Positions 35 to 26,200 of a stretch of DNA of 39,945 bases are shown one piece after another. The stretch spans positions 1 to 39,945 of the forward strand of contig JAUMWL010000005.1 of assembly GCA_030529665.1 (NCBI GenBank), read 5' to 3'. This DNA comes from Coriobacteriales bacterium (lineage in GTDB: Bacteria; Actinomycetota; Coriobacteriia; Coriobacteriales; Atopobiaceae). The translations under genes and the position numbers were made by a program. Below the pieces are notes generated by a model. The model saw nothing but the letters and a program-made list of their open reading frames with translations. It was not told the origin of the DNA and ran no database searches. Position 1 is the first letter of the stretch. Each line of letters opens with the position of its first letter.

Positions 35-304
35 TCACCACGCCTTGCTCTGGCGGACAAGACCATGCACGAAGACAACGTCTGCGTCTTCGTCGTACTC
101 ATACACGAGGTAGAAGGGGGACATCGCGCATTTGCGCACCTGAGGCCCAAACTCCCGCACCAAAGACTCCGGCACAAGGGTCAACCCACTTTGCGGAAAG
201 GCCTCAATCATTTGCAGCAGACTCCTTAGATGCTTCTCCACTGAAGGAGACCATATTTGCGCAACATCATATGCAAAGCCCTCTGCGTACTCCATCCTAG
301 CCAC
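35..304 (-). CDS. RelE/ParE-family toxin of a type II toxin-antitoxin pair
   Basis: An 89-residue protein with the length and layout of the RelE/ParE superfamily: an N-terminal helical part, then a beta-rich C-terminal half (around residues 55-85) with a hydrophobic VYEYDEDADVVFVHG strand pair typical of these toxins. Members usually cleave mRNA at the ribosome or poison gyrase; which applies here cannot be read from sequence. The start is taken as GTG at 304, preceded by AAGGAG at good spacing. It overlaps the stop codon of the upstream antitoxin by 8 bases, the usual antitoxin-first translational coupling. Family call is fairly secure from the pairing; the target is unknown. Confidence 0.75.
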   Translation of the reverse strand: MARMEYAEGFAYDVAQIWSPSVEKHLRSLLQMIEAFPQSGLTLVPESLVREFGPQVRKCAMSPFYLVYEYDEDADVVFVHGLVRQSKAW

Positions 305-587
305 GAGCGCTCCTTATGGACTCAACCGCTGCAAAGAGGTTCTCGGTACCCACTATTACACGACCCTCGCTACGATCGATCCTTCCCGAGCGTATTGTTG
401 CCCTCATGCGCTCGGCATAGGCAGCCTCCTCACGTGCCTCGGCGAGCTTTTGCTCGTATAGTTCTTCCGAAAGCAGGACAAAGGCAGCATTGCCATTCTC
501 GGTTACGTGTACGACCTCCCTGCGCGCTGCGTCCTTTACTTCGCGTTGGCGCGTCTTCAAAGCCGCAGATGAATAGATGGCTGTCAT
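297..587 (-). CDS. Phd/YefM-family antitoxin
   Basis: A 96-residue protein whose N-terminus (MTAIYSSAALKTRQREVKDAAR) and following VVHVTENGNAAFVLLSEE segment match the Phd/YefM antitoxin fold, which dimerises, binds the operon promoter and neutralises the partner toxin through its C-terminal tail. The C-terminal half (AEAREEAAYAERMRATIRSGR) is charged and probably helical, as expected for the toxin-binding arm. The start ATG at 587 follows AAGAGG. It lies immediately upstream of, and overlaps, the toxin gene, so the two form an operon. Autoregulation is expected from the family; inverted AGGTAC half-sites lie at 589-594 and 615-620. Confidence 0.75.
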   Translation of the reverse strand: MTAIYSSAALKTRQREVKDAARREVVHVTENGNAAFVLLSEELYEQKLAEAREEAAYAERMRATIRSGRIDRSEGRVIVGTENLFAAVESIRSARG

Positions 588-701: not shown

Positions 702-3700
702 TTACCTTACGACGACCTTACCGGTGACGGTCTTGGTCGCCGCCTTGTAGTTGCCGTTGCCGGCGGCGGTAACCTTGATCTTTATGGAGTAGGTCCCCTT
801 CTTGGTTCCCTTCTTTACGGTAACCTTGCCGGTGTTCTTGTTTATGGTGAGTACTGCGGATCCGCCCGCCTTGGCGTAGGTGACCTTGCCCTGAGCCTTG
901 GAGACGGTGACCGGGCACTTGACCGCGACGGCCTTCTTCTTGAGCGTAGAGAAGCTCGCGGTCTTTTTGCCCGCCTTCACCGTCATGGGGTTGGCAGCCT
1001 TGTTCACGACGACCTTGTACGAGACCGCCTTCGATCCCGCCTCGTAGTTGGCGTTGCCAGCCGCCGTAACCTTTACGATGACGGCATACGTGCCCGCCGA
1101 GGTTGCCTTTGGTACCGTGACCTTGCCGGTGCTCTTGTTCACCAAGAACTTCTTCGCCGTCGCGTTCGTGCTGGCGTTCGCGTAGGTCACGGCGCCATGG
1201 GCCTTGGAGACGGCCACGTTGCCGGCCGTGGCGACGGCCTTGGCCGGGCTGTAGGTCGTGGTCACGCCCGCGTGCTTCGCGCTCGCCTTGATTGGGTTGG
1301 ACGCCTTGGCGATGGTTACCTGCGCCGTGACCTTGGCCTCGTTGTAGTTGCAGGTACCAGCCGCCGTAACGGTGATGGTTGCCGTGCCAGCGCCAACAAT
1401 GGCCACCTTGCCGGCTGCGTCCACGGTGGCGACCTTGGCGTTAGAGCTCTTGTACGATATGGCACCGTCGACCGACCAATCAAGAACATCGAGCTCGAAC
1501 GGCTCGTCACCATACGTTGCCCTAAAGACGTCTTCCAGGAGGTCGATGTCTTGGTCTGCCTTGGCGATGGCGAAATCTTTGCGTGCGGTACCGGTATAGT
1601 CGCCACAACCAGTTACGACGACAGTTGCCGTACCGGCGTTGACGTTGTTCTGGTATGCAACTTCGTAGTCAAAAGGCCAGTCTAGCTCAGCACCGTTGAG
1701 CGAAACCGTGACGCCCGGCTCGAGCTCCGACCCATCATACGTGAAGCTCTCTTGGTCCAATTCAATCGTGGCACCCGAGATGTTGGTGGGCTGAGGGCTG
1801 GCAGACCCCACAATCTGGAAGGTGGCGGTCCTCGAACCGGAGAAGTTGCCCTTGCCGGTAATGGTTATCGTGGCGGTGCCCGGCCCCACGTTGTTGCTGT
1901 ACCCGAGCGTGTAGTCGGTACCTTTGTCGAGCGCCTTGCCGCCAAAGGTCACGGCGGGCTCGGGCATGAGCTCCTTCCCCGTCGCCGTCTGGTCCGCGAT
2001 CTGCCCCACCGTCACCGCGTCGTCCGCGATGGACAGCGGCGAGATGGTGAACTGGGTGGAGAGGTTGCTGGGCTGCAGGTAGTTTCCGCTGCTCGCCCCG
2101 CCGAACGAGATGGTCGCGGTCGCCGTGTGCGTGCCGGCGCCCGTCGCGGCGCCCGACACCGTGGCGGTCACGGCCTCGCCGGGGGCGGCGTTGCCCACCG
2201 TGGCGGCGGGCTTCTTCGACGTGCCGTCGTAGGCGAGCTGGGTGCCCGTCCACGCGAGCGTGAGCTGGCGCGGCGAGATGGTGAGGTCCGCGCTCGCGCT
2301 GCCGGTGTAGTCGCCCTGGCCGGTGGCGACCACGGTGACGGCGCCCGCGCTCGCGAGGTCGGACGTGGCCTCGCCGCCGCGCCGGTACGACACCGCGTAG
2401 TCGCCCGCCCCGAGCGCGGTGCCGCCCAGGGTCACGGTGACGGCCGGCTGGTGCGCGGTACCGTCGTAGGTGAAGGAGCTCGCCGAGAGGGTCACGGTCG
2501 CGTCGGAGATGTCATTTTGCCCCAACGGATCCATGTCGCGTGTTTCGGTATCGTGGCATACCGAGCACTCGCGCGTCTCCTCGCCTGCCTGGGTTGCCGT
2601 TGGAGGCGTGGTAACATGCCAGTCTCCCCACGTGTGCTGACCAGTCGCGGGAATCTCAACGTTCTCCGTCTGGGTCGCAAACGCCGCGTTCAAGAAGGTC
2701 GCGGTGTAAGTCAACACGCCCGGTTCCTTACAGGTCGCGGCCGCTGTGACCTCCGAGGTCGTGCTCACGGTCTCGGTTTCTTTATGCGCGGAGTTGTTTG
2801 CGCACACGCGTGTGGCGGTCACGCTACCCTTATTAGCTGCCCACACGTACTCGGCGGCACCCCAGTTGTGGCCGCTTACCGTAATGGATACGGTACCGTC
2901 GCAGGAATTGTAGTTGGTCGTGTCACTAGGCGTGAACGTCCAATGGTAGGTGTTCGTGCCATACGACAAGATCGTCTCCGTAAGGCTTAGGGTTCCCGCC
3001 ACGCTGGTATTGGTACGGCTCAACACAACCTTGGAGACGTCGAGGTCATCCACGACCGAGCCGGCCGTTACCGTTCCCAAATTGGGAGTTGCCTTGGAAA
3101 TTGTAAAGTCTGCCGTCGCAGTACCAGACAAATAGGTGTCCGTCTCGGCTATGGTGGCCCTCACTATGTAGCTGTTTGCGTTGGTGGGAACAGCATTCGT
3201 GTAGGTGTTGTCGTCCGAGCCGGCAACCTTGTACTCAAACGTCACGGTACCGTTGCCAGGGTTGCTGCCCTCGGTTAGCTGCGGCGTGTTGGCGGCTTGG
3301 CCATACGTCCAGCCCTGTATGGTGACCTCGGGAGAGATGCTTTGCTTCTCTGTTGTCGGGTCATTCGCCGGATCATAGTTTGTGCTGGAAAGCTCCAAGT
3401 CAGACTGTGGATATGTCGATTTGGTCTCACCATCGTACATAAAGTAGTTCTTTCCCGTCTTGCTAAGCGTGGTGAAGCCGTAGTAGTTATTGGCATAGCC
3501 GCCTTCCACGTAGCCCTTTAGGAACAAATAGTCGGGATTGCCTGCCGAGCCCTCGTCGCAGTTGGTTACGTCTATTAGGTAGTTCTTGCTATCGGGCATG
3601 CGCACAACGTTCCACATGTGGCCACCCATCTCGCTGGTGTTTAGAACGTTGCCCAGAAGCCCCGTAACCGTTAGACACTCAACGTCGGTCCTGCCCGACA

Positions 3701-4712
3701 GGTCGCACAGATACTTGAACGCCTTGGAGTAACCTTCGCACACCACGTCGGTAGTAATATCTCCGTCAAACACCCACACGAGCTCCCAGGGATTGTTGGA
3801 TCCATAGGTGGCAATGCTGCCAGCCTCCAGAGCGGCATCGTTGTATTCCACCAGATTGCAAATCTCCTGCTTGTAGGACGCCAGGCGCACAGACGCCACC
3901 TCGTTCTTGTGGTCGTTTGCAATGGTAGTCGCACGATTGACGGCCGTTTGAACAGACTGAGCAAGAGTCGTGTCTATATTGTAGTCACCCGCCGCATAGT
4001 TAGAGGCGACCTTGATACGAAGGCTTGCCTTAGTAAATATAAAGTCTTCGCTTGAATAACTGTAGCCAAACGATGTCCCGTAGGCTCTACCGTACCAATA
4101 CATTTCGTAGGGACAGTCCGCCCAAACGGCATCCATCGCCTTGTCTACAATCGTGCCGACCTCTTGTGACCACTTGGCACTAATGGCCTCCTTAGCTTCT
4201 TGCGTAATCACGCCGTTCGACAACGGATTGGCAATGCCAACCTCGGCAAATTTCCACTTATCCTTGCTAAGCACCTCAGACAAGGGCAGCTCGATTACAG
4301 TGCTTGATTGCTCGCCGAGGGCAACCTGCTGCACGACCCCTTTTATGACGTCATATACTGCGTACTCTGATTCTGTGAGATACTCCCCCGCGCTTTGTAT
4401 GGTGACATCAAAGTCATCTGCAGATTCGGGCAGCTTCATATCAAACTGCTGCTGAATGTAGGATTTAAACAACTCGTCGTTACTGACGCCGGAATCCCCA
4501 TCCCGCACTTCTATGAATCCAGAGGCCTGGGAACCTTGGTTGGCAACAGTCCCCTCAGAGTCCCCGGGTTCTACCACGATTCCCTCTTCGACCTCGGTGA
4601 GCATCTCCGCAAGGGCCGGAACAGGCACCGACCCCCAGGCCAACAAGAATGCCAGCAGGACCATAAACGCCGTTCGTGGCACGTTGAAACAATTGGGTCT
4701 ACGCTTGTTCAT
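702..4712 (-). CDS. Large secreted transglutaminase-like protein with Ig-like/MBG repeats
   Basis: A 1336-residue exported protein. The start is ATG at 4712 because AGAGGAG lies just upstream; the longer frame to 4745 has no such signal. Residues 1-35 are a Sec signal peptide (basic start, hydrophobic core, PALA cleavage). A transglutaminase-like core follows with a candidate Cys325 (VCEGYSKAF), His365 (GGHMWNVV) and Asp381 (LIDVTNCD) triad, so it could be a protease or cross-linking enzyme acting outside the cell. From about residue 450 on there are Ig-like modules: FTYDG-type MBG repeats, and near the C-terminus two Lys-rich copies ending in KVTAAGNxNY. No LPxTG, membrane helix or choline-binding motif is seen at the C-terminus, which simply ends VVVR. 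The stretch coding for the middle repeats (about 1980-2490) is far richer in GC than the transglutaminase part. Confidence 0.85.
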   Translation of the reverse strand: MNKRRPNCFNVPRTAFMVLLAFLLAWGSVPVPALAEMLTEVEEGIVVEPGDSEGTVANQGSQASGFIEVRDGDSGVSNDELFKSYIQQQFDMKLPESADDFDVTIQSAGEYLTESEYAVYDVIKGVVQQVALGEQSSTVIELPLSEVLSKDKWKFAEVGIANPLSNGVITQEAKEAISAKWSQEVGTIVDKAMDAVWADCPYEMYWYGRAYGTSFGYSYSSEDFIFTKASLRIKVASNYAAGDYNIDTTLAQSVQTAVNRATTIANDHKNEVASVRLASYKQEICNLVEYNDAALEAGSIATYGSNNPWELVWVFDGDITTDVVCEGYSKAFKYLCDLSGRTDVECLTVTGLLGNVLNTSEMGGHMWNVVRMPDSKNYLIDVTNCDEGSAGNPDYLFLKGYVEGGYANNYYGFTTLSKTGKNYFMYDGETKSTYPQSDLELSSTNYDPANDPTTEKQSISPEVTIQGWTYGQAANTPQLTEGSNPGNGTVTFEYKVAGSDDNTYTNAVPTNANSYIVRATIAETDTYLSGTATADFTISKATPNLGTVTAGSVVDDLDVSKVVLSRTNTSVAGTLSLTETILSYGTNTYHWTFTPSDTTNYNSCDGTVSITVSGHNWGAAEYVWAANKGSVTATRVCANNSAHKETETVSTTSEVTAAATCKEPGVLTYTATFLNAAFATQTENVEIPATGQHTWGDWHVTTPPTATQAGEETRECSVCHDTETRDMDPLGQNDISDATVTLSASSFTYDGTAHQPAVTVTLGGTALGAGDYAVSYRRGGEATSDLASAGAVTVVATGQGDYTGSASADLTISPRQLTLAWTGTQLAYDGTSKKPAATVGNAAPGEAVTATVSGAATGAGTHTATATISFGGASSGNYLQPSNLSTQFTISPLSIADDAVTVGQIADQTATGKELMPEPAVTFGGKALDKGTDYTLGYSNNVGPGTATITITGKGNFSGSRTATFQIVGSASPQPTNISGATIELDQESFTYDGSELEPGVTVSLNGAELDWPFDYEVAYQNNVNAGTATVVVTGCGDYTGTARKDFAIAKADQDIDLLEDVFRATYGDEPFELDVLDWSVDGAISYKSSNAKVATVDAAGKVAIVGAGTATITVTAAGTCNYNEAKVTAQVTIAKASNPIKASAKHAGVTTTYSPAKAVATAGNVAVSKAHGAVTYANASTNATAKKFLVNKSTGKVTVPKATSAGTYAVIVKVTAAGNANYEAGSKAVSYKVVVNKAANPMTVKAGKKTASFSTLKKKAVAVKCPVTVSKAQGKVTYAKAGGSAVLTINKNTGKVTVKKGTKKGTYSIKIKVTAAGNGNYKAATKTVTGKVVVR

Positions 4713-4742
4713 GAGCAGCTCCTCTTCTCGCGCGATGTTGCC

Positions 4743-4761
4743 CATACAACTTCATTGTATG
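4743..4761 (-). promoter_or_regulatory. Inverted repeat and possible -10 region upstream of the surface protein gene
   Basis: CATACAA/TTGTATG form a 7-bp inverted repeat with a 5-base gap about 30 bases before the start codon. On the minus strand it overlaps TACAAT, a good -10 match, but no good -35 lies 16-18 bases upstream. It could be an operator overlapping a promoter that needs an activator; this is a weak call. Confidence 0.3.
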
Positions 4762-24864: not shown

Positions 24865-25162
24865 GGCACCTCCCGATCGATCCGTATTTGGAAGGGCATG
24901 ATACCCCAAGGCCTATTGCGCACTTTTGCAGCCAGCTCGCAGCCATTTTGCAGATAAAAACATAAGCATGGTAAGAAGCGCCGCGTTTGCAGACGTATAA
25001 CCATGTGTCGCGCATAGGTATTTAAACCAGTCCAAAATGCAGGGAACCGTTTGGGATTTTTTCGATGGACGGCAGCGAGGAACAACGCAGAGCCCAACAA
25101 AACAATGGCACGCGCCCTCATCAAGAGGCGCGTGCCAAAAGCAGTGTTGTTCTTGCCGTACG
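24865..25162. other. 298-base intergenic region
   Basis: No credible gene: the reading frames crossing it lack ribosome sites and family resemblance. The only structured feature seen is the barstar terminator at its right side. Confidence 0.5.
25096..25137 (-). terminator. Intrinsic terminator after the barstar gene
   Basis: A perfect 11-bp stem TGGCACGCGCC/GGCGCGTGCCA with a 10-base loop (25106-25137), followed on the minus strand by TTGTTTTGTT. It lies 25 bases beyond the barstar stop and closes the ribonuclease/inhibitor operon. Confidence 0.85.
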
Positions 25163-25432
25163 CTAGCGAATGACGCAATAGACAAAGTCGCTCCGTCTTG
25201 CCACGTCACGAACCACGTCCTCAAAGCCATCGAACCATTCTTTGCGATGGCCCTTGCAGCGTTTGATGATTATGCGCGTTGGCACATAGACGTCTTCCAA
25301 ACAGTCCTCAAACGCATCGAGGTTTGCACCGTAGTAGTCGGGAAACCCCAGCTCTTGCGCGAGCAGAGCATGCAGCTCTGCAGGAGACTCAAACGACTTC
25401 TCCTTTAACACCACCTTGCGCAGACGCGTCAT
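25163..25432 (-). CDS. Barstar-family ribonuclease inhibitor
   Basis: An 89-residue protein matching barstar in length and motifs: SPAELHALLAQELGFPDYYGANLDAFEDCLEDVYVPT corresponds to the inhibitory helix and loop of barstar (xLHxxLxxELxxPxYYGxNLDALWDCLT), including the Asp in the LDAF-DCL segment that contacts barnase. It would bind and inactivate the ribonuclease encoded 9 bases upstream while that protein is inside the cell. The start is ATG at 25432 with GGAGG upstream. Confidence 0.92.
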   Translation of the reverse strand: MTRLRKVVLKEKSFESPAELHALLAQELGFPDYYGANLDAFEDCLEDVYVPTRIIIKRCKGHRKEWFDGFEDVVRDVARRSDFVYCVIR

Positions 25433-25441
25433 TGTGCCCTC

Positions 25442-26104
25442 CTAATACAGCCGCTCAAACGTGTTGTAATGATCATCGGTGTAGTATATGAGCCCGTCAT
25501 CTGAGTACAGGATGCGCTTGGAATTGCGCGACCTGCCTCCGTCGTAGTCTATGTCGCACTCGTACCACGTGCGTCCGCTGGCTTTTGGCAACCTTCCCTC
25601 GCGGTTGGAGAACCTGTCTCCTCCTATGGACTTGCCCGGACATGCTTGGGCCAGCGTGAGACCCTTTTTCTTCCAGCCAGCATTCTCTGCCTCGCGCTTT
25701 GTGATGTAGTTGCTCGGCAGATGGGCATAGGTATGGATGTACAGCGCCACCTCGTCCTTGGACGTGTACTCGCCGTCCTCGTCAACAAGGACTTCGATTC
25801 CCTCGTCGGCCGATCCCTCCTCTGAGGCAGAGACGTCATCCTCCGTGGCAGCGGGCGCTTGGTCTTCTTGGGCGTCTGCGCCTTTCTCGTCTGCGCCTTC
25901 CTCTGAGGAAGCGTCTCCCTCAATGGGTACCTCCTCGACAACTTCGTCCTGTTGGACCAGCTCCTCTTGCTCGGCAACTGCCGTCTGCGAGTCGGACGCG
26001 CTCTGTTTGTCCCCAGCAGATGCCGAGCACCCTCCGAGCACCAGGTTTCCCGTAAGCACAAACAGCAGCGCGATGAATAATGCCAGTAGCCTTGTCTTCT
26101 TCAT
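25442..26104 (-). CDS. Barnase-like ribonuclease anchored as a lipoprotein
   Basis: A 220-residue protein. Residues 1-26 are a lipoprotein signal (KKTRLLALFIALLFVLTG, lipobox LGGC with Cys26). Residues 27-112 form an acidic, low-complexity stalk (many Glu, Asp, Ala, Ser). The last 105 residues are a barnase domain in which the catalytic set is intact: Lys136 (NYITK), Glu182 (TWYECDI, general base), Arg193 and Arg197 (RNSKR), His212 (DDHYNTF, general acid), with GKSIGGDRFSNREGRLP also preserved. Classical barnase is a freely secreted 110-residue enzyme, so surface tethering on a stalk is unusual. The start is ATG at 26104 with AGAGGTG upstream; barstar follows directly. Confidence 0.92.
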   Translation of the reverse strand: MKKTRLLALFIALLFVLTGNLVLGGCSASAGDKQSASDSQTAVAEQEELVQQDEVVEEVPIEGDASSEEGADEKGADAQEDQAPAATEDDVSASEEGSADEGIEVLVDEDGEYTSKDEVALYIHTYAHLPSNYITKREAENAGWKKKGLTLAQACPGKSIGGDRFSNREGRLPKASGRTWYECDIDYDGGRSRNSKRILYSDDGLIYYTDDHYNTFERLY

Positions 26105-26200
26105 ATGCATCACCTCTCGCCCAGTATGCCATACGCACTTTTGGACCTGCGATCCAACTCGCCGGACGCTACCCCACATGACCCAAGTGGATGCGACGCC

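What the first reader, a model, noticed from the sequence alone, without database searches (positions are those of the whole stretch)
25163..26104. Surface-tethered barnase on an acidic stalk with cognate barstar
The ribonuclease has an intact catalytic set but is preceded by a lipobox and about 85 residues of acidic linker. Normally barnase is a small free secreted enzyme. A lipid-anchored, stalked RNase could act on RNA or on neighbouring cells at contact, with barstar giving self-immunity. The C-terminus could also be released by proteolysis.
Basis: partly seen in the sequence, partly recalled or inferred. Interest (0 to 1): 0.62.

Follow-up and report, generated by a model that had tools for sequence, protein, structure and literature searches.

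The report
Membrane-tethered barnase with its barstar
A gut/rumen bacterium encodes an RNA-cutting enzyme (barnase) predicted to be held on the outside of its cell membrane by a lipid and a floppy stalk, together with its matching inhibitor; it is real, but this lipid-tethered layout turns out to be common and inherited in gut bacteria rather than a one-off, and the acidic stalk is not its conserved feature.

Summary
On the minus strand, 26104-25442 encodes a 220-aa protein: Sec signal peptide with lipobox (LGGC, Cys26), an 80-residue disordered acidic linker (net -24) and a barnase domain (57% identical to barnase, active site intact). A barstar gene follows 9 nt later (25432-25163), then a terminator-like hairpin. 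Lgt and signal peptidase II are in the genome. All 15 genus members with the main locus keep the lipobox, the domain and the adjacent barstar, at one chromosomal position (rpoC-arsR-P-ATPase-barnase-barstar). The nuclease domain is under strong purifying selection; the linker is not (28-93 aa, charge +2 to -24). So tethering is conserved, acidity is not. Lipobox barnases are also the majority in an unbiased Lachnospiraceae sample (21 of 29 typed). Best explanation: a membrane-tethered extracellular guanyl-type RNase acting at the cell's own surface, most likely for RNA scavenging, with cytosolic barstar as safety catch. Action on neighbouring cells is unproven and, in tethered form, physically awkward. 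New variant of a known kind; moderate interest.

The parts
25442..26104 (-). lipobarnase CDS, 220 aa, start ATG at 26104, stop TAG
   Evidence: translation; PF00545 E=1.1e-19; genus conservation
26112..26118 (-). ribosome-binding site GAGAGGT, 7 nt before the start codon
   Evidence: read in sequence
26027..26104 (-). Sec/SPase II signal peptide and lipobox LGGC, lipid-accepting Cys26 (predicted)
   Evidence: sequence; Cys column conserved in 15/15 genus main copies; Lgt and LspA in genome
25787..26026 (-). 80-residue acidic disordered linker (26 acidic, 2 basic)
   Evidence: AlphaFold pLDDT 45-60; fast-evolving
25445..25786 (-). barnase (guanyl-type RNase) domain, catalytic residues intact
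25437..25443 (-). ribosome-binding site AGGAGGG of barstar, overlapping the barnase stop codon
   Evidence: read in sequence
25163..25432 (-). barstar (cytosolic barnase inhibitor), 89 aa, no signal peptide
25106..25137 (-). terminator-like hairpin (12 pairs, 9 GC) with T-rich tail, closing the pair

Best explanation
A two-gene unit for a membrane-tethered extracellular RNase. The prebarnase is exported by Sec, lipidated on Cys26 by Lgt, cleaved by signal peptidase II, and stays on the outer face of the cytoplasmic membrane with a folded, catalytically competent barnase domain held out on a disordered linker. It cleaves RNA that reaches the cell-wall zone (3' of guanosines, as barnase does) and most likely serves RNA degradation for nucleotide, phosphate or nitrogen recovery near the cell's own uptake systems, in RNA-rich rumen and gut contents. 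Barstar, probably made from the same transcript, stays in the cytosol and blocks any copy that folds before export. Shown here: architecture, active-site residues, pairing, vertical conservation, selection. Inferred: lipidation, activity, localisation. Least certain: the nutritional role.
For: Domain and fold identity. Catalytic E73/R83/R87/H102 present in 138-139 of 139 relatives. Barstar adjacent in 15/15 genus main copies and 50/51 typed family members; barstar Asp39 in 124/125. Lipobox in 15/15 genus main copies; Lgt and LspA present. Same locus through the genus: rpoC-arsR-P-ATPase-lipobarnase-barstar; the barnase tree groups the genus. Domain dN/dS about 0.02-0.10 versus 0.35-0.78 for the linker. 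No phage match and four distant plasmid-collection records, arguing for a resident gene. In relatives the N-terminal anchor is exchanged (lipobox, hydrophobic segment, hydrophobic segment plus peptidoglycan-binding domain), so surface retention itself may be selected.
Against: No experiment on lipidation, localisation or activity. Many non-lipobox relatives could carry cleaved signal peptides rather than anchors; I did not resolve this. No uptake or nucleotide-salvage gene sits in the unit. Barnase-type RNases have also been recruited as toxins (PMC3482391), so a role in competition is possible.
Confidence: 0.6

Rival explanations
1. Antibacterial toxin with immunity: the tethered (or proteolytically shed) barnase enters or is taken up by neighbouring cells, and barstar gives kin immunity.
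For: Toxin-then-immunity gene order with barstar; barnase is a recurrent toxin domain in polymorphic toxin systems, and simple barnase-barstar pairs are called an incipient form of these (PMC3482391).
Against: No delivery, repeat, pre-toxin or translocation domain; no C-terminal polymorphism, instead one conserved domain at one syntenic locus in the genus; linkers as short as 28 aa in the genus.
Confidence: 0.2
2. The acidic linker is an intramolecular inhibitor (RNA or barstar mimic) that keeps the RNase off until it is cut.
For: Linker net charge -24, the most acidic of 11 lipoprotein candidates found in 359 kb of the same genome; among Clostridia loci, barnases without adjacent barstar have more acidic linkers (median -19 vs -7.5, p=0.0017).
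Against: Acidity is not conserved in the genus (+2 to -24); no relation between linker charge and domain charge (rho -0.03); the barstar-unlinked acidic loci are largely one Lachnospiraceae clade and 13 of 17 such genomes carry barstar elsewhere.
Confidence: 0.08
3. Ordinary free secreted barnase: the Cys is incidental and the protein is cut by signal peptidase I, or rapidly shed from the surface, so that it acts as a free enzyme.
For: Bacillus barnase is free, with a signal peptide and propeptide (PMC8294519); lipoproteins of Gram-positives can be shed (general knowledge).
Against: Lipobox conserved in 15/15 genus copies while the signal peptide as a whole is only 37% identical; Lgt and LspA present.
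Confidence: 0.1

Closest known systems
Barnase-barstar of Bacillus amyloliquefaciens (PF00545 / PF01337)
   Same: Same fold and active-site residues, 57% identity in the domain, cytosolic inhibitor with Asp39
   Different: The Bacillus enzyme is a free secreted cationic protein; here a lipobox and a disordered linker precede a slightly acidic domain, and Ala74 next to the catalytic Glu is Cys
Surface-attached nuclease Nuc2 of Staphylococcus aureus (PMC3994088) and cell-wall-anchored nuclease of Streptococcus sanguinis (PMC4118848)
   Same: Nuclease held on the outer surface of a Gram-positive cell
   Different: They are described as nucleases acting on DNA, with other anchors (a signal-anchor transmembrane segment in Nuc2, a cell-wall anchor in S. 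sanguinis); a cognate barstar-type inhibitor is not part of those reports as read here
Barnase-type polymorphic toxins with Imm-Barstar (PMC3482391)
   Same: Barnase domain at the C-terminus, barstar gene directly downstream
   Different: No trafficking, repeat or processing domains and no polymorphism here

Membership tests
Barnase family (PF00545, bacterial guanyl-type RNases) | Profile match over the curated cut-off and barnase fold | tested here: met
   71.2 bits vs cut-off 24; Foldseek to barnase 1bgs E=3e-14
Barnase family (PF00545, bacterial guanyl-type RNases) | Catalytic Glu73, Arg83, Arg87, His102 and Lys27 | tested here: met
   alignment to barnase
Barnase family (PF00545, bacterial guanyl-type RNases) | RNase activity with guanosine preference | not testable with these tools
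   needs purified protein
Barstar family (PF01337) | Profile match and inhibitory Asp39 | tested here: met
   54.5 bits vs 23.4; Asp39 present
Bacterial lipoprotein | Charged n-region, hydrophobic h-region, lipobox with invariant Cys; lgt and lsp in the genome | tested here: met
Bacterial lipoprotein | Actual lipid modification and membrane retention | not testable with these tools
   needs labelling, globomycin or fractionation
Polymorphic toxin system | Secretion or delivery N-terminal domains and exchangeable C-terminal toxin domains | tested here: not met
   only PF00545 found; same C-terminal domain and locus through the genus
Polymorphic toxin system | Immunity gene directly downstream of the toxin gene | tested here: met

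The most novel reading that the evidence does not exclude
Surface-tethered barnases of gut Coriobacteriia and Clostridia form a widespread contact- or shedding-based antibacterial system with exchangeable anchors, in which barstar gives kin immunity.
Probability: 0.15. Interest if true: 0.6.

Novelty: new variant of a known kind. Interest (0 to 1): 0.38.

Why it matters
Barnase is a textbook free secreted enzyme. In the gut and rumen lineages sampled here the usual form carries a lipobox or another hydrophobic N-terminus, which changes the likely biology from release into the medium to RNA cutting at the producer's own surface. I found no paper in the held library that describes this. The charge-swapped barnase/barstar contact in relatives also offers natural, possibly orthogonal, pairs for protein-interaction work.

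Tried and rejected
Acidic linker as conserved functional element: rejected, charge and length vary freely in the genus. Linker acidity replacing barstar: the correlation is confounded by one clade, and most of those genomes have barstar elsewhere. Mobile cassette: rejected by synteny and by near absence in phage and plasmid records. Repeated independent charge swaps at the 59/76 contact: the tree gives only one supported independent pair, so the swap is mostly shared ancestry, not replicated coevolution. Sigma-70-like promoter directly upstream: none found.

Full report
What is there. The minus strand carries two genes, 26104-25442 (220 aa) and 25432-25163 (89 aa), 9 nt apart, closed by a 12-pair terminator-like hairpin at 25137-25106. 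Each start has a good ribosome-binding site; the second overlaps the first gene's stop codon, which suggests translational coupling (read in the sequence). The first protein is a signal peptide ending in LGGC at Cys26, 80 linker residues with 26 acidic and 2 basic side chains, then a barnase domain. Pfam gives Ribonuclease and Barstar well above cut-off; the closest solved structures are barnase and barstar. The AlphaFold2 model shows a signal helix, an unstructured linker (pLDDT about 45-60) and a confident barnase domain that Foldseek matches to barnase, entry 1bgs.

Is it active? The equivalents of Lys27, Glu73, Arg83, Arg87 and His102 are present; Glu73, Arg83, Arg87 and His102 are kept in essentially all of 139 relatives. 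In the genus the domain evolves at dN/dS about 0.02-0.10, so it is under strong purifying selection. Activity itself was not tested.

Is barstar cognate? Barstar lies next to barnase in all 15 main copies of the genus, and Asp39 is kept in 124 of 125 relatives. The barnase-59/barstar-76 contact, Arg-Glu in Bacillus (PMC8837141), is Arg-Asp here. In about 120 linked pairs the charges match: Arg59 with Asp/Glu76 in 27 of 29, Asp/Glu59 with Arg76 in 50 of 50. On the tree this swap is essentially one event, so it shows that pairs stay matched, not that they were re-matched many times.

Is it lipidated? The Cys column is kept in 15 of 15 genus main copies although signal peptides are 37% and linkers 24% identical on average. 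Lgt and signal peptidase II are encoded. That makes lipidation likely; it is not shown.

Is the acidic stalk special? In this one genome it is the most acidic of 11 lipoprotein candidates found in 359 kb. But across the genus linkers run from 28 to 93 residues and from +2 to -24 charges, with dN/dS 0.35-0.78. It behaves as a spacer under weak constraint. An autoinhibitory role is possible but has little comparative support.

How unusual is a tethered barnase? Not very. PF00545 occurs in 15 of 16 genus genomes, 68 of 140 family genomes and 37 of 296 sampled in the class. Lipobox forms make up 20 of 51 typed family members outside the genus, 43 of 64 Clostridia-type loci found from the query, and 21 of 29 typed in a Lachnospiraceae-family sample drawn by Pfam search rather than from the query. 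The others start with a hydrophobic segment without a lipobox Cys (anchor or signal peptide, not resolved); L080 carries a PG_binding_1 domain between that segment and the RNase. In the phylum sample two genomes each carry a free and a lipobox guanyl RNase (L202/L210 and L204/L209). So the premise that barnase is normally free reflects Bacillus.

History. The order rpoC-arsR-heavy-metal P-ATPase-lipobarnase-barstar is shared by the genus genomes as far as their contigs reach, in some with extra genes between the ATPase and the barnase, and the genus barnases form one group in the tree (SH-aLRT 87). It is a resident gene, not a cassette; phage records lack it and the plasmid collection holds four distant matches. 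The nearest named locus, L017, is from an Atopobiaceae genome of yak jejunum.

How it probably works. Export, lipidation, surface retention, RNA cleavage near the membrane, barstar as cytosolic safety. The step from surface RNase to RNA scavenging is inference from the enzyme class, the lack of toxin-delivery parts and the fixed locus. A fully stretched 80-residue linker is at most about 29 nm and its typical span only several nm (general polymer arithmetic), so the tethered enzyme should mostly work inside the wall zone; acting in a neighbour's cytoplasm would need release and uptake.

Verdict. Observation confirmed; interpretation partly supported. By sequence and fold it is a member of the barnase family; it differs from the textbook member in predicted localisation. 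New variant of a known kind, widespread in sequence data, and not described in the papers I could search.

Noticed in passing
window 25556-25558 (-), barnase position 74; also L001-L145: A cysteine directly after the catalytic Glu73 (ECDIDY) is present in 137 of 138 relatives, where Bacillus barnase has Ala; a thiol beside the active site.
   Followed up: partly
L085-L145 (other Coriobacteriia): The barnase-59/barstar-76 salt bridge is charge-reversed (Asp/Glu59 with Arg76, 50 of 50 pairs), opposite to the window and to Bacillus.
   Followed up: partly
L018-L023, L029, L035, L043, L045: A group of very acidic Lachnospiraceae lipobarnases lacks adjacent barstar and is mostly followed by a ~480-aa multi-pass membrane protein; barstar lies elsewhere in most of these genomes.
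   Followed up: partly
L080 and L081: Barnase preceded by a hydrophobic N-terminus and a peptidoglycan-binding domain (PF01471, E=3e-18 in L080; L081 judged by eye), another way to hold the enzyme at the wall.
   Followed up: partly
L016 (G014:C9:69384-69692): Second, divergent barnase in one genus member, with an N-terminal hydrophobic segment, no lipobox and no adjacent barstar.
   Followed up: no
L204/L209 and L202/L210: Two actinobacterial genomes each carry one free secreted and one lipobox guanyl RNase, suggesting division of labour.
   Followed up: no
window 35-587 (-): ParE-like toxin and Phd/YefM-like antitoxin pair, both just under Pfam's cut-off.
   Followed up: no
window 702-4745 (-): Large 1347-aa protein with weak MBG and Big_2 matches, probably a surface protein.
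   Followed up: no
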